A stretch of DNA of 53,277 bases from a virus: positions 1 through 53,277 of the IMG/VR virus record IMGVR_UViG_3300030104_000348. One strand, 5' to 3'. A program made the translations under genes and the position numbers. This document shows positions 3,204-47,196 of this stretch, one piece after another. Each line of letters begins with the position of its first letter. Within the stretch, counting starts at the first letter, position 1. The notes under the pieces were generated by a model. The model saw only the letters and a program-made list of their open reading frames with translations, did not search any database and had not been told where the DNA came from.

Positions 3204-3419
3204 ATGAAGAATGAATATTTAAAAGAAACATTTAGTGATGATAAAATAATTGTATCAGACGTAGATATAGATGCAATGCATAGATACATAAGCAGTAATG
3301 ATGCACAGACTATATCTGATATTGTCCATGATGCTTTAACCTCTATGGATATTAAACATGATGGTTTTGGTTGGGATATAAATGTAACAGTAGAAGCACT
3401 CAACAGAAAGGAGAAGTAG
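3204..3419 (+). CDS. Small acidic hypothetical protein
   Basis: A 71-aa acidic protein following the preceding gene by two bases. It has a helical middle with alternating acidic and hydrophobic residues and a strand-like end (GWDINVTVEALNR). It ends in AAGGAGAAG, the ribosome site of the methyltransferase gene. Family unknown. Confidence 0.65.
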   Translation: MKNEYLKETFSDDKIIVSDVDIDAMHRYISSNDAQTISDIVHDALTSMDIKHDGFGWDINVTVEALNRKEK

Positions 3420-3421
3420 TT

Positions 3422-4549
3422 ATGAATGTATTAAGTTTATTTGATGGTATGTCATGTGGACAGATAGCCCTCAACAGAGCAGGTGTAAAGTATAATACTT
3501 ATTATGCATCTGAAATAGATAAGTATGCTATTGAAGTAGCACAGGCTAACTACCCACACACTATACAATTAGGTGATGTAACTACTTTAATGAAAGGCAT
3601 TCCATCAGGTCAGAAAGTTTACAAAGGTATGATGCTAGAGATGGTTGCACATAACATTGGTCTCATAATGGCAGGTTCGCCCTGTCAAGGTTTTAGTGTA
3701 GCAGGTAAGCAGTTAAATTTTGATGACCCACGTAGTAAATTATTCTTTGAGTTTGTACGTATCAAAGATGCCATTGACTTAAGAAGAGGGGTGTTAGGTA
3801 AAAAACCTGTCAAGTTTCTTTTAGAAAATGTGCCAATGAAACAAGAGTCTCAAGATATTATCACAAAGTATTTAGGTGTTAAGCCTGTTACTATAAACAG
3901 TAGCTTGTTCTCTGCACAGAATAGAAAGAGATTGTATTGGACTAACATACCCTTTGATATACCTACAGATGACAAGGGTATAATACTACAGGACATACTA
4001 GAAGATGGTATTGCTAATGAAGCTATGACTAATCAGAATGGTAAGGCACATTGCATTACTGCACGATACAATGGTGCAGTATGGTGGAACAGTATACAAC
4101 GTAAGCAACGTACTATGGTGCAAGTAGGTGAAGCTGACAATATCAAAGGCTTTGACAGTATCAAACGTATCTACTCACCTAATGGGAAAGCACCCACACT
4201 TACCACTATGCAAGGTGGGCATAGAGAGCCAAAGGTAGCTATAGGTAGGATTGTTAATCGTAGACTAGATGAGCATGGTGTACGTAAAGACAATCAACTA
4301 GACCTACCATTTACTAATCAACTAGAGGTTAGTGATACAGATAAATCTAATTGTCTTACTACCTTTACAAAAGATAATGTATTGGTTAATGGTATGCAAT
4401 GGAGAAAGCTGACACCTGTAGAGTGTGAGCGATTACAAACAGTGCCTGACAACTACACCAACCATGTATCTAATAGTCAGAGATATAAAATGTTAGGTAA
4501 TGGCTGGACAATTGATGTCATAGCACATATATTAAGAGGTATAAAATGA
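3422..4549 (+). CDS. DNA (cytosine-5)-methyltransferase
   Basis: A 375-aa C5-cytosine DNA methyltransferase, transferring methyl from S-adenosylmethionine to cytosine. The ATG at 3422 follows AAGGAGAAG; an in-frame start further upstream would remove that context. Motif I is LSLFDGMSCGQ at the N-terminus. The catalytic Cys is in GSPCQGFS (about residue 88). The ENV motif is FLLENVP (about 135), QxRxR is AQNRKR (166-170), and motif X GNGWTIDVIAH is at the C-terminus. The target-recognition part spans about 190-330. No restriction enzyme is next to it, so it more likely protects phage DNA from host nucleases. The target sequence cannot be read off. Confidence 0.93.
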   Translation: MNVLSLFDGMSCGQIALNRAGVKYNTYYASEIDKYAIEVAQANYPHTIQLGDVTTLMKGIPSGQKVYKGMMLEMVAHNIGLIMAGSPCQGFSVAGKQLNFDDPRSKLFFEFVRIKDAIDLRRGVLGKKPVKFLLENVPMKQESQDIITKYLGVKPVTINSSLFSAQNRKRLYWTNIPFDIPTDDKGIILQDILEDGIANEAMTNQNGKAHCITARYNGAVWWNSIQRKQRTMVQVGEADNIKGFDSIKRIYSPNGKAPTLTTMQGGHREPKVAIGRIVNRRLDEHGVRKDNQLDLPFTNQLEVSDTDKSNCLTTFTKDNVLVNGMQWRKLTPVECERLQTVPDNYTNHVSNSQRYKMLGNGWTIDVIAHILRGIK

Positions 4550-38004: not shown

Positions 38005-39078
38005 TTACGCTACATTATATTTAGCAGTCACGATAGCTTCAGGTCGAAGTATCTTTCTGCCATACAAATGCATACCACGAACAATATCAGCGAAACTGTC
38101 AGGGTCTCTGTAAGTTTCTGTTTTATTGATTTGTTCAGCAGTAGCTACTGAAGAACTGTGTCCTGCAACGATAACACCATAGTTAGTGTTTTGGTTTGCT
38201 GAACCTGTAGTTCCCGGACCTGTTCCAGCGGCAGGTAAATTGTTTGATGAGTAAACATCAAAACCATGTAACTTGCCTACAGAAAGTCCTGATCTTAATC
38301 CACCTGATTCACCAAAGTCTGCATTGAGAAGTCTTGAGTCTTCATCTTTTAGAACTTCAATAAAAGTTGGATGTAACACAAGCCATCTACCGTCTGTGTC
38401 TACAAATTGTGTATCTAACAGTCTGCCCATTCTTGCAATAACTTGCAATGGTGTAGCAGTAGCAGTTGCTTGTGCAGTAGCACCGGGCATACGTGGTGCT
38501 AATGGGATAGAGTGGTCACCAGCACTTGATGTGGTGATGTTACCAAAACTATCTTTTCTCAACTTCATGCTTGTTAGCAATTCATCAGAACCTGCAGTTG
38601 ATACAGCTTTTGTACCATTTACAGTTGAGTTTGCTGAACTCGCTACGGAGTTGATTGAGGATTGTGCAAATCCTGATAAATAACCAAGAACTTCTTGGTC
38701 ATATTGGTCTTTTAGTCTGTAACCTGCTCTGTCACTTGCGAGTTGAGAGAAGTTTACGTGACTATGTGCTTCTTCTATGTCATCAATCTTAAAAGCATAA
38801 TAGTTTGCTTGATCAATAGTTAAGCTGAAGTCTTCGTCATCAAGGTCTTGTGGTTGAATATTTGTACCACGAGCATATTCCTTGACTGTGATTTCTGGTT
38901 CTTTAATAATCTTAACAGTATCACCCATTGCAGAGATTTCACCAAAGTAATCAGAATTAGTAATACTTTCTACAATAGAACTTTTTCTGAATGCTAGTTG
39001 AACCTGCTTCGAATATATTACAGGTGAGAAATTACCGTTAGGTAGATTACCATATCCAGCAGCCGTTTTAAACGCCAT
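38005..39078 (-). CDS. Major capsid protein
   Basis: A 357-aa protein with an HK97/P22-coat-like layout: N-arm, a helical segment (SQLASDRAGYRLKDQYDQE, about 110-130) and a beta-rich P-domain region. VKEYARGTNIQPQDLDDEDF (about 65-85) is typical for podoviral coat proteins of marine phages. The gene has its own promoter, a leader hairpin and AGGAGAAAC as ribosome site, as expected for the most abundant virion protein. It follows the scaffold gene. Confidence 0.88.
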   Translation of the reverse strand: MAFKTAAGYGNLPNGNFSPVIYSKQVQLAFRKSSIVESITNSDYFGEISAMGDTVKIIKEPEITVKEYARGTNIQPQDLDDEDFSLTIDQANYYAFKIDDIEEAHSHVNFSQLASDRAGYRLKDQYDQEVLGYLSGFAQSSINSVASSANSTVNGTKAVSTAGSDELLTSMKLRKDSFGNITTSSAGDHSIPLAPRMPGATAQATATATPLQVIARMGRLLDTQFVDTDGRWLVLHPTFIEVLKDEDSRLLNADFGESGGLRSGLSVGKLHGFDVYSSNNLPAAGTGPGTTGSANQNTNYGVIVAGHSSSVATAEQINKTETYRDPDSFADIVRGMHLYGRKILRPEAIVTAKYNVA

Positions 39079-39294: not shown

Positions 39295-40152
39295 TTATCT
39301 TGCAGAGCCTGATAAATCATAGATAAATTTACCACTTCTGATAGCTTCCATTATCTTTTCTTGATTTTTTTCGTATTGTTCAGGTGACATTTTATCTACT
39401 TGAGACTCTCTAAAAAAGTTTTTAGATTCATCAATGTCAGGTTCTGCTCTATTATTTTTAGTTTTTACAACTTTCGCAGCATCATTATTAGCTTTAGGTT
39501 TGTTAATAATATTTTTATCAACTTTATATAAATCTATTGCTCTAGCAGCAGATCGTGCATCATTGTCATTGTCATATAATGCATCTTGAACCCATTTAGG
39601 CTGTTCTTCTGCCCACTCGTGAAAGTCATCACTATCTCTTATGTCAGCAAAATCAGGATGTATTCTCATTAATTCTGCTTCTGCTTTTTCTTTTGTAGCA
39701 TTTAATTGTAACTCATTAATGCTTTTTACTCTTTCTTCTAATTGTTTTGAAGTTTCTTTTGCTTTCTTAATAGCAATTGTTTCAACCATTGCAGCAACAT
39801 CAGGATATTCTTTAGCCCAAGTTTCTAACTCTTCTTCTGTCTTAGGTAGTTTAATTTCTTTTTTCGTTGCTTCAGATAATTGTTTAGAAAGTTCTTCTAC
39901 TCTCAATAGCAAATCTTTTTCTTTTTGCTGAGAATGTCTTCTTAAATCGCCATACCTTTTTTTAAATGTTTTTTCTTCGGCACTTTTAGGTTCTTCTTCT
40001 TTCTCTTCTTCTTTTAGTTCAGGTTCTTTTTCCTGTTCCATCATTTTTTTTAGTTCTTCTTCATCCTTCTTTATTCTTTCTTCTACATTAGAAGGTTTAC
40101 TCATAAATGCAACTTTCTTAGGTGTTGCTTCCTGTACTATAGCTTCAGCCAT
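39295..40152 (-). CDS. Capsid scaffold (assembly) protein
   Basis: A 285-aa, highly charged, almost entirely helical protein (IKKDEEELKKMMEQEKEPEL, KDLLLRVEELSKQLSEATKK), with a long coiled coil in the first half and a short C-terminal segment (KFIYDLSGSAR). Charge, coiled coil and position immediately before the capsid gene are the usual marks of a podoviral scaffold. Its C-terminus would bind the coat protein, as in P22 and T7. The capsid promoter follows its stop. Confidence 0.82.
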   Translation of the reverse strand: MAEAIVQEATPKKVAFMSKPSNVEERIKKDEEELKKMMEQEKEPELKEEEKEEEPKSAEEKTFKKRYGDLRRHSQQKEKDLLLRVEELSKQLSEATKKEIKLPKTEEELETWAKEYPDVAAMVETIAIKKAKETSKQLEERVKSINELQLNATKEKAEAELMRIHPDFADIRDSDDFHEWAEEQPKWVQDALYDNDNDARSAARAIDLYKVDKNIINKPKANNDAAKVVKTKNNRAEPDIDESKNFFRESQVDKMSPEQYEKNQEKIMEAIRSGKFIYDLSGSAR

Positions 40153-40214: not shown

Positions 40215-42044
40215 TTATTTTTTAGAAGCTAACCCACCACGCTTCATAACTTTTTTCTTTGATTTTTTAGATTTATTCATTAAACCACCTTTTGCACGAA
40301 CATATCCTTGTCCACCTTCTCTTTTAGACCTAGAAACTTCTGCTTTTTGTTCTTCTGTTCTTGAATCTCGTGCCGCTTGTGCCGCTTCTCTATCTGCCTT
40401 TTCTTGTTCTCTTTGTGCTTTATCTTCTAATTGCTTTAAATATGCTTTAGCTGCAGCATCTTGTTGTGCTTTTTCTGCAGCTAATTGTATTACTTTTTTT
40501 CTAGCTATGTCAGCTTCTACTTTATTTTGTTCTTCTTGTAACTTTTTATTAAATAATTCATCATCAGTCATTTCGTTTTCTGTTTTAATTTTTTTAGTTC
40601 TATAAAATTCATCATCAGTTTGACCCATTGGTGGTGATTTTTGTATTTCTACTTTTGGTATTGTTACTCCTGATGTAGTTTCAGTTTTATCTAAAGATGC
40701 AGGGTCTATTTGAGATGGGTCTTGTATAGCTGTTCCACTTGCACCTCCTGCAATTTGAGATGCTGTAGGAACACCTAATTGAAAATCACTTACAGTAGCA
40801 GGAATAATAGATGCACTGCCTACATTTGTTGTACCTGATAATGTACTGCCTACTTTTGCTGTTGTAACTTCTGCAGGTTTTACACTTGAAGTAAAAGTTG
40901 TGCCTGTTGGATATCCTTCTTCTTCGTCTTCAAAACCACCTGCTGCTATTTTAGCTGCATCTTCTAAACTAAAATCTGTAAATGAAATTTGATTACCTGA
41001 TTTATCAAAATTATCAGGGTCTAGTATAGTGTAAGGACTTGGATTATTTAAATTTTGATTGGCTAATTTAATGCTAGGAAATAAAAATCCCGGAACAGGT
41101 CTTCCCATTACTGTATACTTACCATCTTTAATAAACTGAACAGCTTCTTCTGCACTTAATCCTTTTTGTTTCATAACTCTTTGAATAGTATCTACGTAAC
41201 TTTTTATTGTTGTATTTTCTCTTTCTCTCATATTTTTAGGAGACGTTGCATCACCTTCTCTATCTTCAGTTACTTTAGTTGTTTCAACAGTAGTTTCTTT
41301 AGGTGCTGTTTCTTCCACAGCATCAGGGTCTTCCATAGTAAAACCTTTTTCTAATAATTCTTCAACCTTATCTTGGTATGCAGGTAAAGGTTCACCATCT
41401 TTATATGCAACATACTGTATCTCGCCATTAGGTCCTACAAACTTACGTAATTCATCATATTTATATGGTTTTGTTCCTATTAACTCTTCGTATGTTGCAG
41501 GTGTTTCAGGTTCAGGATCACCTTCTTTTGGTTGGTTATAAAATTTAGCTTCTTCATTTGATGGTGGTGGTGACTTTTTAGGTGGGTTTGGTGATGGCTT
41601 TTGAGGTGGAAATACTCCTGTTATCGTTCTTGGTGTTCTTTTAAATTTTGAGTCTACTGTGTAAGTTCCTGTATTAGGATTTACATCTCCACCTGTTTGC
41701 ATTTTTGTTGGTTCATTTTCTATATCTAAATCGTCTATAGTAAAAGGCACATCATCAGGCATTGTAGCTTCTTCTGAGTTACCCATTTGACCCATTTCTT
41801 CCATACGTTTAAGACCTGCTTTAGCTTGTTGTCTTATCATCATAAGTTTTTCTAAACCTATAAACCTAACTACATCTGCAGGAAAGACAAACTCGCCTTC
41901 ACTTAGTTGTGCAGGTATATCATCTCTAACTTCTTCTTGTGCAGAACCTACAGGTACTTCGTTGCCTGATACAGGATCAACTGTGCCACCATCTTGTTCT
42001 AATCCACCTTCTTGAAATAGGCTCATTTGTTGTTGTAAACTCAT
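40215..42044 (-). CDS. Disordered Pro/Glu-rich virion-module protein
   Basis: A 609-aa protein, mostly low-complexity. The N-terminus (GGTVDPVSGNEVPVGSAQEE, then DDIPAQLSEGEFVFPADVVR) is a block I associate with a conserved protein of marine podoviruses next to the portal gene. Residues about 140-180 are Pro/Lys-rich, the centre is Thr/Glu-rich, and residues about 500-590 are Ala/Glu/Gln-rich helices. The C-terminus ends in a Lys-rich GLMNKSKKSKKKVMKRGG stretch that might touch DNA. Role in the virion unknown. Confidence 0.7.
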   Translation of the reverse strand: MSLQQQMSLFQEGGLEQDGGTVDPVSGNEVPVGSAQEEVRDDIPAQLSEGEFVFPADVVRFIGLEKLMMIRQQAKAGLKRMEEMGQMGNSEEATMPDDVPFTIDDLDIENEPTKMQTGGDVNPNTGTYTVDSKFKRTPRTITGVFPPQKPSPNPPKKSPPPSNEEAKFYNQPKEGDPEPETPATYEELIGTKPYKYDELRKFVGPNGEIQYVAYKDGEPLPAYQDKVEELLEKGFTMEDPDAVEETAPKETTVETTKVTEDREGDATSPKNMRERENTTIKSYVDTIQRVMKQKGLSAEEAVQFIKDGKYTVMGRPVPGFLFPSIKLANQNLNNPSPYTILDPDNFDKSGNQISFTDFSLEDAAKIAAGGFEDEEEGYPTGTTFTSSVKPAEVTTAKVGSTLSGTTNVGSASIIPATVSDFQLGVPTASQIAGGASGTAIQDPSQIDPASLDKTETTSGVTIPKVEIQKSPPMGQTDDEFYRTKKIKTENEMTDDELFNKKLQEEQNKVEADIARKKVIQLAAEKAQQDAAAKAYLKQLEDKAQREQEKADREAAQAARDSRTEEQKAEVSRSKREGGQGYVRAKGGLMNKSKKSKKKVMKRGGLASKK

Positions 42045-43357
42045 ATCATACCACCTTTGTATCTATCTAATCTAGGATCACCTTTTGTTTTTGTTTCACT
42101 AAATTTATATTTAACCTGATCTGGTTCTAATAGCATATAGCTATCTGCAAACATATCTAATTTATCCTCTTCTCTTGTATTTTTGTAAATATAAGAATCA
42201 TATCCATTTTTATTTGCTATCTTTTTTATTTTATCAAACCATATTTTACGATCTTCGAAATTAACAATCTTATTTTCTTTACGTCTAGCTTGTTCTTTTA
42301 ATGCACTAAGAACTAAATCTTTCCATAATTTCTCATCCATTTTTTCTGTTACCATTGATTGTTTTATTTTTGGGTCGTAGTTTTTTACAGCCATTTCTGC
42401 TGCATCATCAGACATAAAATATGTTACACCTTCGTATTCTACTTTTGGTTTATTTTTTAAACTTATCATGGCTTCGGCTGTTTGTGTCATAAAATCCATC
42501 ATTGGTTTATCATTAGATGCAACAGTTATATTGTTTAACCAATTTTGAGGACTATAAAATAATCCTACATCAGGAACACGAGCAGGTTTTAAATCATCTG
42601 CAATTTTTAAAGGAAAGGTTCTTTGTCCTATAGCTTTTATATCTTTTCCTTCAAGTTCTAAAGTAGGTTTATTTGTAACATCTGCTACTCTATATTTCAT
42701 TATATTTACAGTATCTGCTTGTCCTTTTGTACCTACATGTATTCCAAAATCAGATTCACCCATTAAATTAAACTTATCTCCTTCTATTTCTCCTTTACCT
42801 AAATGATATACATTTTTTGTATATGTTGTTGTAGGTTTTAATTTTTCTTTTTTAATTTTAATACTAACTTTTTCTTTTTTTGGTTTAATACTAACTTCTT
42901 CTTTTGGTAAAGATTTTTTTATTCCTGTTTGTAATCCCTTAACTAATGCTTTACCTGAAATAAATCCACTAATTATTTCTCCTGTCATTTGTGCAGGATC
43001 ACTAGCATTTGAAGGTATACCTATTGAATTTAACATCTGATCAAATTTAGCCCTACCAAATTTTTGTTGTAAAAAATCTATCTGTGGTTGTACAGATGTT
43101 GCAATAGCAGATATGTTTTTTGAACCATAGTTTATTGCTAAATCATTTACAAGTTTATTTAATTCTAATAAATCAGAAGGTATAGCTGCTGTGCCTACAG
43201 CAACCCCAATACCTGCTTTCTTCATTCCTTCTGCTTGTTTTTTAGCAAAATCTTTAAAAGAACCTTGTTCTCCTCTTGCAAATTTACCACCCAGAGCATA
43301 TTCAGGCAAAAGTTTATTTATTTGTGCACGTATTTGTTCTTGTGATGGACTAGCCAT
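42041..43357 (-). CDS. Virion-module protein with ADP-ribosyltransferase-like domain
   Basis: A 438-aa protein with an N-terminal helical part (1-150), a Lys-rich linker (about 152-178) and a C-terminal domain (180-420) resembling the mono-ADP-ribosyltransferase fold found in phage polyvalent proteins. Matching features are VYHLGKG (183-189) with the Tyr-His of the first motif, SDFGIHVGTKGQADT (202-216), PDVGLFYSPQNWLNNI (262-277) and NGYDSYIYKNTREE followed by SYMLLEPDQVKY (384-417). I read these as the NAD-binding core, but cannot align them formally. Encoded between portal and scaffold, the protein could enter the cell with the DNA, as T4 Alt does, and modify host proteins. Confidence 0.65.
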   Translation of the reverse strand: MASPSQEQIRAQINKLLPEYALGGKFARGEQGSFKDFAKKQAEGMKKAGIGVAVGTAAIPSDLLELNKLVNDLAINYGSKNISAIATSVQPQIDFLQQKFGRAKFDQMLNSIGIPSNASDPAQMTGEIISGFISGKALVKGLQTGIKKSLPKEEVSIKPKKEKVSIKIKKEKLKPTTTYTKNVYHLGKGEIEGDKFNLMGESDFGIHVGTKGQADTVNIMKYRVADVTNKPTLELEGKDIKAIGQRTFPLKIADDLKPARVPDVGLFYSPQNWLNNITVASNDKPMMDFMTQTAEAMISLKNKPKVEYEGVTYFMSDDAAEMAVKNYDPKIKQSMVTEKMDEKLWKDLVLSALKEQARRKENKIVNFEDRKIWFDKIKKIANKNGYDSYIYKNTREEDKLDMFADSYMLLEPDQVKYKFSETKTKGDPRLDRYKGGMI

Positions 43358-43556
43358 TTACCTCATCTCTTAATAATTTAAGTCTACGTAAAGATGCTAT
43401 TGCACCTTGTGATCTATACATTAAAATACTATTATCAGATTGTTCTAATGCTTTATGTTGTTGTACTATTAATTGTTCTATATAGTTACTGAACGCTTCC
43501 CATTGGTGGTTGTTGTTCACCAACGGTTTCAGTTTGCTGAGTATTTGCTTGTCCAC
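43350..43556 (-). CDS. Small protein beside the portal gene
   Basis: A 68-aa helical protein (MDKQILSKLKPLVNNNHQWE...) whose gene overlaps the end of the portal gene by 71 bases in another frame and the next gene by 8. The pattern with FSNYIEQLIVQQHKAL and SLRRLKLLRDEV is seen in small phage proteins after portal genes. Function unknown. Confidence 0.65.
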   Translation of the reverse strand: MDKQILSKLKPLVNNNHQWEAFSNYIEQLIVQQHKALEQSDNSILMYRSQGAIASLRRLKLLRDEVNG

Positions 43557-45627
43557 TGTCTTGAGGTACTCCTGTAAATCCTTGTTCTCCCGGAATAGGT
43601 GCTTGTCCTGTTCCTATTGTTCCACCACCTGCTCCTGTTGGATCGCTAGGGTCTGCTCCTGCAGGTGCTTGTTGCTGTGGTGGTTGTTGTGGCATAGGTT
43701 GTTGGAAGCCCTTCATTAGTTCTGCCTGTATTGCTGCATCATTCATGTTGTTTGTTACCTTATCAGGATCAAGGTCTAATGACTTAGCAATCTCTCTTAT
43801 AACATATTGAAACTTAGCAAAAGGTGCTAAAGCAGGATTTGCTGCAACTTGTAAAAATTGCATCAGTCTTTGTGACCTAACTTCGTTAGCCATTAGACTT
43901 TCTGTTCCTCTTGCTTTAACTTCTAAATCACCTTTTATTTCAGAGTTATAATCAAACTGCATATTAAATCTAAATAAACCTTCACCTAAAGGTCTTAACA
44001 AATAGTCATCAACATTTTTAATAACTGTTTTTATACTACCACTTGCTGCATTCATTAACATAGATATACCACTTGCAGTTCTACCCACACCTGTGACACC
44101 TGTTTGTCCATGAGCAAATGATGGCAATCCTGTTGATTCATCTGATAACTGTCTTGCTTTATCAAACAACTGTAAATTTTCATTTGACACATTTGGAAAC
44201 TTCGTACCAAAAATAGCTTGACCCGGTGCTCCACCTTGTCTTCTAAATATTTTACCCGGATATACAGACAAGTCCTGTCCCGGAACTAAATTAGTTTCAT
44301 CTACTTCTATTAACATATTACCTGATAACACAGCGTTATCTACAGCCATTCTCATAAATCCATTCATTAATGTCTGTGTATCATCCATGTTTTCGGCTAT
44401 ACCCACACCAAAAAATGAATATGGATTAAGTTCATAAGGTGCAGCTACATAAGGTATCTTAGCAGGTTTAAATGGATTAAGAACCATACGTAATAGTTTA
44501 CCGTTACATATCCATGCATTTATTTGTAGTTCATCAAAGTCTCGTAATTCTTTTGGTATTTCTACATTCTGTTCTTCTAACATATCGGTATCACACATAC
44601 CCCAATACTCAAGAACTTCATATCTTTCAATTCCATATTCAGGTGCATAGTCTGCTAAATCATCTTCCCAAGATTCTTTAGTATAATTTTCTCCTTCCTC
44701 TATTGCATCTTCTATTACGCTATCTCTAAAGTGAGGTCTTCTTTTTAAACTACGTAGTTGACTTCTTGACATTTTATGTCTTTCAATAACGTATGTTACC
44801 TCATCCATATTGTTTGCATCAGGATCAGGATAAAAATTCCAAACAGATACATGATTAACTTGTGGAACTGTTTTAAATAAAGGACTATAATCACCCTCAT
44901 CATTCCAATTAGGGTATTCTTTATCTATAGCAAAAGGTCCTTTCATTACACCTGTGCCAAACAATGCCATTTCAAAAGCTGTACTTCTTAAATGTTTATT
45001 AGCACCTGACTCTTGTAATTGATCGTGTATTTTCTTTTCCATACTTTTTGCTGCAATCATTGCAGGACTAAAAGTTACAGATGTTGGTGTTGTTCCTGCA
45101 CCCTCTTTTAAACCTTCTATATCTGATAACTTTTCTTTTAAAGGACCTAGTTGTTCTTTTAAACTTCTTTCTGTAGCACCTGCAGGTAATTTTTTACCAT
45201 CATCAGCATATCCATAAGGAGATTGTAATTCTTCAGGTTCTTTAAGTTCATCTGGTTGTTTTGGATCAAAATGTACATCTCCTACTACACCTTCAGGTAG
45301 TTCCGTAGGTTCTATACTTAAAGGAAATTTATTATTAGAAAACAATACATCTACAATTTGTCCATAAGCAGCAAGTGTTTTTGTTTTAGTTACTTTTATA
45401 AAAACTCTAGATTTTTCTGCTTCTGTAAATTGTACGTCTGAACCATAGATACCTCTGTAGTTTCTATAAGAACGTAACCATCTTGATTCATCGTTTTCTC
45501 TGTATTTATCAGCACGATGATATTTTTCCATTATAAATGGTATTATGCCTGATTCATCTGTTTGTGTATCTTTACCATCTTCTAAAGATATAGCTTCATC
45601 TTCGATAATAATTTCTTCTTCTGCCAT
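43486..45627 (-). CDS. Portal protein
   Basis: A 713-aa portal protein, forming the dodecameric DNA gate at one head vertex. It has the typical helical N-terminal part (KYRENDESRWLRSYRNYRGI), the clip/wing section (WNFYPDPDANNMDEVTYVIE) and the LPSFAHGQTGVTGVGRTASG region near residue 505, seen in P22-like and marine podoviral portals. The C-terminal 70 residues are Pro/Gln/Gly-rich and disordered. It lies directly after TerL. Confidence 0.9.
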   Translation of the reverse strand: MAEEEIIIEDEAISLEDGKDTQTDESGIIPFIMEKYHRADKYRENDESRWLRSYRNYRGIYGSDVQFTEAEKSRVFIKVTKTKTLAAYGQIVDVLFSNNKFPLSIEPTELPEGVVGDVHFDPKQPDELKEPEELQSPYGYADDGKKLPAGATERSLKEQLGPLKEKLSDIEGLKEGAGTTPTSVTFSPAMIAAKSMEKKIHDQLQESGANKHLRSTAFEMALFGTGVMKGPFAIDKEYPNWNDEGDYSPLFKTVPQVNHVSVWNFYPDPDANNMDEVTYVIERHKMSRSQLRSLKRRPHFRDSVIEDAIEEGENYTKESWEDDLADYAPEYGIERYEVLEYWGMCDTDMLEEQNVEIPKELRDFDELQINAWICNGKLLRMVLNPFKPAKIPYVAAPYELNPYSFFGVGIAENMDDTQTLMNGFMRMAVDNAVLSGNMLIEVDETNLVPGQDLSVYPGKIFRRQGGAPGQAIFGTKFPNVSNENLQLFDKARQLSDESTGLPSFAHGQTGVTGVGRTASGISMLMNAASGSIKTVIKNVDDYLLRPLGEGLFRFNMQFDYNSEIKGDLEVKARGTESLMANEVRSQRLMQFLQVAANPALAPFAKFQYVIREIAKSLDLDPDKVTNNMNDAAIQAELMKGFQQPMPQQPPQQQAPAGADPSDPTGAGGGTIGTGQAPIPGEQGFTGVPQDSGQANTQQTETVGEQQPPMGSVQ

Positions 45628-45636
45628 AATTTTTCC

Positions 45637-47196
45637 TTAATATCCAAATGTTGTATCTGCTATAGGCATACTACTTGTGGGAGTACCCATAGGATCATAA
45701 TCAAATATACTAAATCTAGGTCTTGACATAATGCCATACCTTAATGCATCATATAAGTGATCTTCAGATTTAGTATCTACATCTTCAGGATTTTTCTTAT
45801 CCAATGGTATTGCAGGTATTTGTGATATTAAATTTACACAGTTATTAAAAAACACTAATCTTGGTTCTTCTGTAAACTCATCTACCTGTAATCTTCTATG
45901 CAACTCGTTCTTACCTGATACACGAGAACCTTTACTTCTATCTGATGGTCTCCATCTACAACCTCGTATAATCATTTGTTCTGCTAGTGAAGGACCTGTA
46001 TCACCTCTTTTATGCCATAAACTAGAGTCTAATACTCCATACTTCATATTACCATCACCTGATTCTAAATCTAAAACCATATCTGCTAAGTCTGTCGCAA
46101 GAACCTTTGATACATAAAGTTCACGATATACCACAAGTTGTTCAGCAGGTGAAACAGCAAACCAAACAACCCCTGAATAACTGCCGTAACCATAGTCACA
46201 AGCACGAAACTTAACCCAATTGTTAGGGATACTATAAGGCTCAACAACATGTATATCCCTGTTAAATTCAGTAAATGCTGCACCTTCTTTAATATCCCAA
46301 TCACCTTCCAAGAGTTGTCTTCTCTGTTGTTCAGGAAGGGAAAGTAGCATTGCTTCATAGTCTCCACTTTCTGCGAGGTATGGATTATCAGATAATCTTG
46401 CAGGAATAAATCTCCGTTTAAATAAGGATTTTCCTGCTTTTCTATGTCCTGCAGGGTACTTAAGAATTTCTCCTGTTTCAATATCTGTTGCATCAAATGC
46501 GTTTCCATAAGGTGCTTGGTCAATAAACATTTTCTTAACCCAATGATGTCCTATGCCACCCGGGTTAGTTGTTGCTCTCATAAATATTGGCAAGTCAGGT
46601 GCTGTAGAACGTAAACGTGAACGCATATAATTCCAAGCAAAAGAACTTCCCCATTGTGTTAATTCATCAAAGCCTATCCAACTAAAAGCCAAACCTTGAT
46701 AACGCATAACATCTTCATCTCTATCAAGATAAGACATCCACAATCTTGCACCTGATGGTGCTACCCATTGCATTTTTCTTTCATACCACTTTATACCCTT
46801 CCATACTTTTGGGTATAACTCTTGAGATTTAAATATAAGTTCTCTTAGTTCTTCTGTAGTATGTCTTAAAAGTAATCCACTAAACTGTGGATGACCCATA
46901 TATCTAAGAGGATCAGCTAACATAGCAAACGACTTGCCACCACCTGCTGAACCACCATATAAAACTTCTCTTTCAGATGCAGCAAGAAACTCTGTTTGAG
47001 GACCTTTGTTAGGTGCAAATACTATATTTTGTTCTTCAATAGTAGGTTTTTCAACACCCTCAACTATAGTGTTAGTTAGTGTAGGTTTTTGCTCCTGTTC
47101 TAGTTTCTTCGATTTCTTTCGCTTTGAAGATCGCCTTTTCTGCATATTCTGCCCACTTGCGTAGGCTTCTAACTGTGTTCTTACGTTTCTGCTCAT
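45637..47196 (-). CDS. Terminase large subunit
   Basis: A 519-aa packaging motor. Walker A is GGSAGGGKS (81-89), Walker B FSWIGFDELT (171-180) with D177/E178. The nuclease Asp residues are likely in FRACDYGYGSYSG, KYGVLDSSLW and YDALRYG. The first 60 residues are Lys/Arg-rich and overlap the upstream gene by 125 bases; an alternative ATG at 47145 would shorten that. Group assignment by phylogeny would indicate the packaging mode. Confidence 0.93.
   Translation of the reverse strand: MSRNVRTQLEAYASGQNMQKRRSSKRKKSKKLEQEQKPTLTNTIVEGVEKPTIEEQNIVFAPNKGPQTEFLAASEREVLYGGSAGGGKSFAMLADPLRYMGHPQFSGLLLRHTTEELRELIFKSQELYPKVWKGIKWYERKMQWVAPSGARLWMSYLDRDEDVMRYQGLAFSWIGFDELTQWGSSFAWNYMRSRLRSTAPDLPIFMRATTNPGGIGHHWVKKMFIDQAPYGNAFDATDIETGEILKYPAGHRKAGKSLFKRRFIPARLSDNPYLAESGDYEAMLLSLPEQQRRQLLEGDWDIKEGAAFTEFNRDIHVVEPYSIPNNWVKFRACDYGYGSYSGVVWFAVSPAEQLVVYRELYVSKVLATDLADMVLDLESGDGNMKYGVLDSSLWHKRGDTGPSLAEQMIIRGCRWRPSDRSKGSRVSGKNELHRRLQVDEFTEEPRLVFFNNCVNLISQIPAIPLDKKNPEDVDTKSEDHLYDALRYGIMSRPRFSIFDYDPMGTPTSSMPIADTTFGY

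What the first reader, a model, noticed from the sequence alone, without database searches (positions are those of the whole stretch)
42041..43357. ADP-ribosyltransferase-like domain in a virion-module protein
VYHLGKG, SDFGIHVGTKGQADT, PDVGLFYSPQNWLNNI and NGYDSYIYKN...SYMLLEPDQVKY line up with my memory of polyvalent-protein ARTs (H-Y-E type). Because its gene lies between portal and scaffold and the N-terminus is helical, the enzyme may be packaged in the head and injected to modify host proteins, as T4 Alt does. Such an effector has not, to my knowledge, been described for this phage type.
Basis: inference. Interest (0 to 1): 0.75.

Follow-up and report, generated by a model that had tools for sequence, protein, structure and literature searches.

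The report
Marine phage head-gene ADP-ribosyltransferase-like effector
A gene next to the head-assembly genes of a common type of ocean virus of bacteria encodes a protein with an ADP-ribosyltransferase-type enzyme domain, which is probably carried in the virus particle and used on the host at the start of infection, in a gene slot where related viruses swap in different enzyme modules.

Summary
The finding holds in substance; the active-site reading needs correcting. The 438-aa gene (42041-43357, minus) lies in an HMO-2011-type podophage. Its C-terminal domain (residues 173-438) is homologous to the polyvalent-protein ADP-ribosyltransferases (ART-PolyVal). Profile-profile comparison with five such domains from unrelated phages gives 98.9% probability and E 3e-17 (column-shuffled controls at most 24 versus 113 points). 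Direct Pfam hits stay below cut-off. BFVD fold matches include proteins named PolyVal ART; the two best PDB fold matches of a relative's model are a cyanophage pre-ejectosome protein and the ART anti-CRISPR AcrIF11, both individually weak. The signature is not H-Y-E: across 44 distinct relatives (41-44 covering each position) strand 1 is His185, the strand-2 Tyr is replaced by His207, Glu396 and Asp405 are invariant, and Ser406 sits where PARP has its Glu. All 52 loci of one search carry the domain between portal and scaffold-like genes: 33 fused in frame to a conserved 'SEGEF' core, 16 as the adjacent gene, 3 cut. That core occupies 49 of 50 complete slots, the ART only 2; others carry peptidase, lysozyme or methyltransferase modules. 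Best reading: a swappable virion-delivered effector. Packaging, injection, activity and target remain inferred.

The parts
42041..43357 (-). 438-aa protein: N-terminal slot module plus C-terminal ART-like domain
   Evidence: ORF; relatives
42878..43357 (-). N-terminal module, residues 1-160, shared with other slot proteins that carry an HExxH peptidase-like region instead of the ART (L017, L019, L021, L025, L030) or together with it (L117, L123)
42044..42841 (-). ART-PolyVal-like domain, residues 173-438
   Evidence: hhalign to PolyVal ART domains Prob 98.9, E 3.1e-17; BFVD fold matches; AF2 model pLDDT 71, pTM 0.75
42803..42805 (-). His185, strand-1 His, invariant (41/41)
   Evidence: aligned to H15 of alignment A6
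42737..42739 (-). His207 in GIHVGT, in place of the strand-2 Tyr, invariant (41/41)
   Evidence: aligned to HFG of alignment A6
42170..42172 (-). Glu396 of the YxNxxE motif, invariant (44/44), candidate catalytic acid
42140..42145 (-). Asp405-Ser406 of DSYMLLE; Ser406 stands where PARP has its catalytic Glu (from general knowledge); Asp405 is the second candidate acid
   Evidence: 43/43 each
43350..43556 (-). 68-aa ORF (GTG start) overlapping the portal 3' end and the ART gene start; conserved in all 85 loci examined
40215..42044 (-). 609-aa protein whose first ~125 residues (about 41670-42044) are the conserved SEGEF slot core; start ATG overlaps the ART stop (ATGA)
43486..45627 (-). portal protein (SU10_portal family; ~78% identical to HMO-2011 and CRP-345)
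39295..40152 (-). scaffold-like protein (role inferred from position; phrog_13678, unknown function)
38005..39078 (-). major capsid protein
   Evidence: phrog_267, E 4.6e-67
45637..47196 (-). terminase large subunit

Best explanation
It is a modular early effector of an HMO-2011-type podophage: an N-terminal slot module followed by an ADP-ribosyltransferase of the polyvalent-protein kind. The most likely course is as follows. The protein is made late with the head genes. It is packaged in the capsid, either as a fusion with the SEGEF core (relatives) or, as here, as a separate product of an overlapping gene. It enters the host with the genome and uses NAD+ to ADP-ribosylate a host macromolecule, favouring take-over or blocking a defence. 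Shown by computation: homology to ART-PolyVal domains, conservation of the His/His/Glu/Asp set, the constant gene slot, fusion to the conserved core in relatives, and exchange of modules in that slot. Inferred: packaging, injection, NAD+ chemistry and the nature of the target.
For: Homology: alignment A4 against five PolyVal ART domains (pT24 x2, Tunturi_5, Dfl-JY45, Rctr197k; the proteins of the first three phages exceed the PF18760 cut-off, Rctr197k has no PF18760 hit) gives Prob 98.9, E 3.1e-17, score 113; 100 column-shuffled controls reach at most 23.7. Fold: BFVD hits at E 7.5e-6 with probability 1.0, and among lower ranks proteins named 'PolyVal ADP-Ribosyltransferase'. Model of a relative's domain: best PDB matches 9k3a_B (probability 0.95) and AcrIF11 6kyf (0.51). 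Residues: H185, H207, E396, D405 invariant. Context: in 52/52 loci the ART is in the portal-scaffold slot, 33 fused to the SEGEF core, 16 as the adjacent gene, 3 cut by the contig end. Module swapping: core in 49/50 complete slots, ART in 2/50; others have lysozyme, cell-wall hydrolase, methyltransferase, LPD23 and HExxH regions; L117 and L123 carry the HExxH motif and the ART in one chain, and L117 also LPD23 over its cut-off. Precedents: LIMEstone1 ORF173, a PF18760 ART, was found in virions by mass spectrometry with one peptide (PMC3296691); 9k3a_B is A-4L ORF27L, an ejectosome chain with an ART-like YHGT...GTYFS motif. Selection: dN/dS 0.19-0.53.
Against: No virion proteomics or biochemistry is known to me for any member. 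Direct Pfam hits to PF18760 are below the cut-off: none for the window, best relative as a full protein 16.7 bits against 31.2. PDB fold matches are not significant by E-value (0.01 and 0.15), and the model of the window's own domain has mean pLDDT only 71. The strand-2 Tyr is His, and the PARP Glu position is Ser, so catalysis is not guaranteed. The window protein is separate from the SEGEF core, so co-packaging of the two is not directly implied. That the SEGEF protein is itself in the virion is inferred from its position.
Confidence: 0.66

Rival explanations
1. The domain has the ART fold but has lost transferase activity; it binds NAD+ or ADP-ribose or serves as a structural part of the virion.
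For: The strand-2 Tyr is His and the PARP-Glu position is Ser in all relatives; dN/dS (0.19-0.53) is higher than that of the portal (0.11).
Against: H185, H207, E396 and D405 do not vary while most of the sequence does; PF18760 members with the same HFG...YxNxxE layout occur in unrelated phages; AcrIF11 is an active ART with a non-canonical H-F-H-D set (PMC12421852).
Confidence: 0.13
2. An active ART that is not injected: it works inside the infected cell late in infection, on phage head proteins or against defences that sense portal or terminase.
For: It is encoded with late genes and in this phage is a separate polypeptide; Iyer et al. 2022 raise protection of the packaging apparatus as an alternative (PMC9503650).
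Against: In 33 of 52 loci it is fused to the slot core, and a homologous ART was found in virions of LIMEstone1.
Confidence: 0.13
3. The His-His signature means that it behaves like the H-H-h clade of ARTs, acting on RNA or small molecules rather than proteins.
For: H185 and H207 occupy the strand-1 and strand-2 positions; the H-H-h clade is described as RNA and small-molecule enzymes (PMC9503650).
Against: The closest profile relatives are ART-PolyVal domains, grouped with H-Y-D protein modifiers (PMC5512222); two acidic residues are invariant.
Confidence: 0.06
4. Not an ART at all; the motif likeness is chance.
For: No Pfam hit for the window protein at any reported level; PDB fold matches weak.
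Against: Profile-profile E 3e-17 against shuffled controls, and BFVD fold matches.
Confidence: 0.02

Closest known systems
ART-PolyVal (Pfam PF18760), 'HFGT' type domains such as Tenacibaculum phage pT24 BPT24_156
   Same: H in strand 1, H-F/V-G in strand 2, YxNxxE, then [D]S-aromatic-hydrophobic strand and P-x-Q-[VI]-K; profile-profile E 3e-17
   Different: The window family has an extra segment of roughly 70-100 residues between the shared N- and C-terminal halves and scores below the Pfam cut-off
Tox-ART-HYD2 clade / polyvalent ART prototype, Roseovarius Plymouth podovirus 1 vRNAP protein (Iyer et al. 2017, PMC5512222)
   Same: Strand-1 His, head- or virion-associated large modular protein, ART next to other effector modules
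   Different: HYD2 is defined by H-Y-D, here H-H with E396/D405; no direct HMM match to the RPP1 protein
Phage T4 Alt
   Same: Proposed mode: head-packaged ART injected with DNA
   Different: Alt belongs to the R-S-E clade; no sequence relationship was seen; here packaging and activity are untested
Cyanophage A-4L ORF27L (chain B of PDB 9k3a, pre-ejectosome)
   Same: Best PDB fold match (E 0.01, probability 0.95); contains an ART-like YHGT...GTYFS motif near residue 1424
   Different: A 1717-aa ejection protein with the Tyr type of strand 2; no significant sequence match to the window family; which part of the chain matched was not shown
AcrIF11 (PDB 6kyf), ART anti-CRISPR
   Same: Second PDB fold match; an active ART with a non-canonical residue set
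   Different: Small standalone protein; fold match weak (E 0.15)

Membership tests
ART superfamily (PolyVal-related) | Homology to established ART-PolyVal domains | tested here: met
   hhalign Prob 98.9, E 3.1e-17, score 113 against controls of at most 23.7; BFVD fold matches
ART superfamily (PolyVal-related) | Fold match to solved ART structures | tested here: inconclusive
   AcrIF11 at E 0.15 and an ejectosome chain at E 0.01; diphtheria toxin and PARP4 appear only at E 1.1 and 8.7
Pfam PF18760 ART-PolyVal | Score above the curated cut-off (31.2 bits) | tested here: not met
   Window: no hit; best relative scanned as a full protein (L113) 16.7 bits
Tox-ART-HYD2 (H-Y-D active site) | His in strand 1 | tested here: met
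   H185, 41 of 41
Tox-ART-HYD2 (H-Y-D active site) | Tyr in strand 2 | tested here: not met
   His207 in 41 of 41
Tox-ART-HYD2 (H-Y-D active site) | Asp in strand 5 | tested here: inconclusive
   D405 is invariant, but the register against the catalytic position is off by one (Ser406 there); E396 is an alternative
Polyvalent proteins (Iyer et al. 2017) | Large multidomain protein combining several effector or LPD modules, in phage head context | tested here: inconclusive
   Met by relatives: L117 has N-module, LPD23 (33.5 bits, over its cut-off), HExxH, ART and SEGEF core in 1410 aa. The window's own protein has only two modules.
Head-packaged, injected ART (as T4 Alt) | Present in the virion and delivered to the host | not testable with these tools
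   Only context and precedents
Head-packaged, injected ART (as T4 Alt) | R-S-E active site of the Alt/VIP2 clade | tested here: not met
   The C-terminal domain carries H-H-E/D

The most novel reading that the evidence does not exclude
HMO-2011-type phages, abundant in the ocean, have a dedicated cargo slot: a conserved SEGEF core acts as a packaging or ejection carrier, onto which interchangeable effectors (ARTs with an H-H-E active site, HExxH peptidases, methyltransferases, lysozymes) are fused or docked and then injected. The H-H-E/D ART is a catalytically distinct, active subtype.
Probability: 0.35. Interest if true: 0.72.

Novelty: new variant of a known kind. Interest (0 to 1): 0.5.

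Why it matters
The HMO-2011 type is described as a dominant and broadly distributed marine phage group (PMC9038755), and many of its genes have no assigned role. If the reading is right, a gene slot that appears in databases mostly as 'hypothetical protein' is where these phages keep enzymes they deploy first in a cell. That gives a defined set of proteins to test for host take-over or defence evasion in Roseobacter and SAR116 hosts. It also extends head-encoded ARTs, reported mainly from myoviruses (PMC9503650), to a common podophage group, and it draws attention to a His-for-Tyr active-site subtype of the PolyVal ARTs.

Tried and rejected
Single-sequence searches with the window protein against Pfam, PDB sequences and the phage collection gave nothing useful. 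The PHROG 'endolysin' match (phrog_7348, E 5e-4) covers only 65 residues of a 2564-position profile and was not taken as function. tblastn of two relatives' domains against the phage collection found nothing; a trimmed query found the Ackermannviridae ARTs only at E 0.5 or worse, so these were used as leads and then tested by Pfam and profile comparison. PDB sequence searches with profiles A4, A6 and A8 gave only chance hits. The genome-contig scan with A4 found no cellular or prophage relative. Direct HMM search of the RPP1 polyvalent ART with the A4 profile failed, and A4 against the Tyr-type alignment A7 is not convincing (Prob 3.7), whereas A6 against A7 is (Prob 98); the link to the Tyr type is therefore indirect.

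Full report
What is there. The window is a 53,277-base virus record. Its portal is 77.6-81.3% identical to those of Roseobacter phages CRP-345 and CRP-1 and Puniceispirillum phage HMO-2011, so it is an HMO-2011-type podophage; its DNA polymerase has a weak DnaJ-like zinc-finger match, below cut-off. The order on the minus strand is terminase, portal, a 68-aa ORF, this gene, a 609-aa gene, a scaffold-like gene and the major capsid gene. The stop of this gene overlaps the start of the 609-aa gene as ATGA.

Is it real? Residues 173-438 recur in 52 IMG/VR loci found with a six-row profile and 59 with a broader one. Of 44 distinct domain sequences, H185, D203, G205, H207, V208, G209, Q213, A214, R246, P258, R260, D263 and W273 do not vary in the 41 or 42 that cover them; W373, F374, Y386, D387, S388, Y391, N393 and E396 do not vary in all 44; D405 and S406 do not vary in 43. 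dN/dS between pairs is 0.19-0.53, against 0.11 for the portal. This is a constrained, somewhat fast-evolving domain.

Is it an ADP-ribosyltransferase domain? Direct Pfam search is silent for the window. A few relatives show sub-threshold ART-PolyVal matches (3 of 30 members, best E 0.0046). A consensus-like C-terminal fragment led to Tenacibaculum phage pT24 (E 1e-3), whose neighbouring protein pair scores 73.8 and 43.8 bits against PF18760 (cut-off 31.2). An alignment of five such domains from pT24, Tunturi_5, Dfl-JY45 and Rctr197k (A6) aligns with the 30-sequence family alignment (A4) at Prob 98.9, E 3.1e-17, score 113. One hundred column-shuffled versions of A6 reached at most 23.7. Rctr197k itself has no PF18760 hit, so A6 is not wholly made of certified members. 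The AF2 model of the window domain (pLDDT 71, pTM 0.75) matches viral predicted structures in BFVD from E 7.5e-6, eight of them at or below 1e-3; proteins named PolyVal ART appear at E 0.009 and 0.016. A better model of a relative (L104, pLDDT 78.6) has as its two best PDB matches chain B of the cyanophage A4 pre-ejectosome (E 0.01, probability 0.95) and the ART anti-CRISPR AcrIF11 (E 0.15, probability 0.51). These PDB matches are weak one by one. Chain 9k3a_B is Anabaena phage A-4L ORF27L, and this protein contains YHGT...GSGTYFS...QAA near residue 1424, a Tyr-type ART motif by eye; Pfam does not report it.

The active site. The published polyvalent ARTs have His in strand 1, Tyr in strand 2 and Asp in strand 5 (PMC5512222). 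Here strand 1 is H185. The strand-2 position is H207, not Tyr. Ser406 falls where PARP has its Glu (from general knowledge of PARP), Asp405 is one place before, and E396 in YxNxxE is invariant. In A6 the same layout appears (HFG with YxNxxE), and there the Glu is invariant while the Asp is not. In A7, domains with G-[FI]-[YWF]-[LF]-T in strand 2 lack the YxNxxE motif, and four of them have a Glu directly before the last hydrophobic strand (REVVVYKP, REIVLYKP, REFVAFSP). I therefore propose His185, His207 and Glu396, with Asp405 as alternative, as the catalytic set. This is an inference from small alignments. AcrIF11, with H-F-H-D, shows that non-canonical sets can be active (PMC12421852).

Context and architecture. 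In the loci, the ART is always in the portal-scaffold slot: 33 of 52 fused in frame to the SEGEF core, 16 as the gene directly before it, 3 cut by the contig end (my count from that table; some contigs are near-identical, so these are loci and not independent events). I then surveyed loci recruited by the portal alone, plus five isolates: of 50 complete slots, 49 contain the SEGEF core and 2 the ART. The large slot proteins range from about 470 to 1700 aa. Pfam finds phage lysozymes, cell-wall hydrolase, methyltransferases, LPD23 and a metallopeptidase-like family in one or two members each. Five of the surveyed slot ORFs, and also L117 and L123, carry a HEIQHA-type HExxH motif. L117 joins N-module, LPD23, HExxH, ART and SEGEF core in one 1410-aa chain. 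The portal search kept the 80 best matches to the window portal, so the 2 in 50 applies to fairly close kin only.

Delivery. Iyer et al. 2022 report that about 44% of phage ARTs lie in contexts suggesting head packaging and that ARTs are rare in podoviruses (3%) (PMC9503650). LIMEstone1 ORF173 is over the PF18760 cut-off (47.2 bits) and was recovered from virions by mass spectrometry, though with one peptide only (PMC3296691 Table 2). None of this tests the window protein itself.

Conclusion. ART-superfamily homology: about 0.93. Active enzyme: about 0.7. Virion-delivered: about 0.65-0.7. It is filed as a new variant of a known kind because it fails the PF18760 cut-off and the HYD2 Tyr criterion while being clearly related to the first.

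Noticed in passing
43350-43556 (-): A 68-aa ORF (GTG start) overlapping the portal 3' end; a homologue (E 1e-3 or better) was found in all 85 loci checked, including pelagiphage HTVC033P. HMO-2011 has a short annotated gene at the same place.
   Followed up: partly
L003:5963-7840, also L004, L008, L009, L010, L013: Between the N-module and the ART these relatives carry an insert with VYRTG...TSFTLNPDF...EDEIII, which by eye recalls an R-S-E type ART, so the chain may hold two different ARTs. No Pfam hit for L003 or L013.
   Followed up: no
L002:2400-4109: A different, unidentified insert of about 130 aa at the same junction, showing repeated module exchange between N-module and ART.
   Followed up: no
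L218 (Anabaena phage A-4L) 20116-25269 (-): ORF27L, chain B of the solved pre-ejectosome 9k3a, contains an ART-like YHGT...GTYFS motif near residue 1424 that Pfam does not report.
   Followed up: partly
L210:1441-1899 (LIMEstone1 ORF173): A mass-spectrometry-confirmed 'unknown structural protein' of Dickeya phage LIMEstone1 is a PF18760 ART (E 5e-12); relatives occur in other Ackermannviridae.
   Followed up: partly
3371-4549 (+): C-5 cytosine DNA methylase (Pfam E 7e-40).
   Followed up: no
L093:12908-13612 (CRP-345 gp61): An annotated SAM-dependent methyltransferase sits in the same slot in CRP-345.
   Followed up: no
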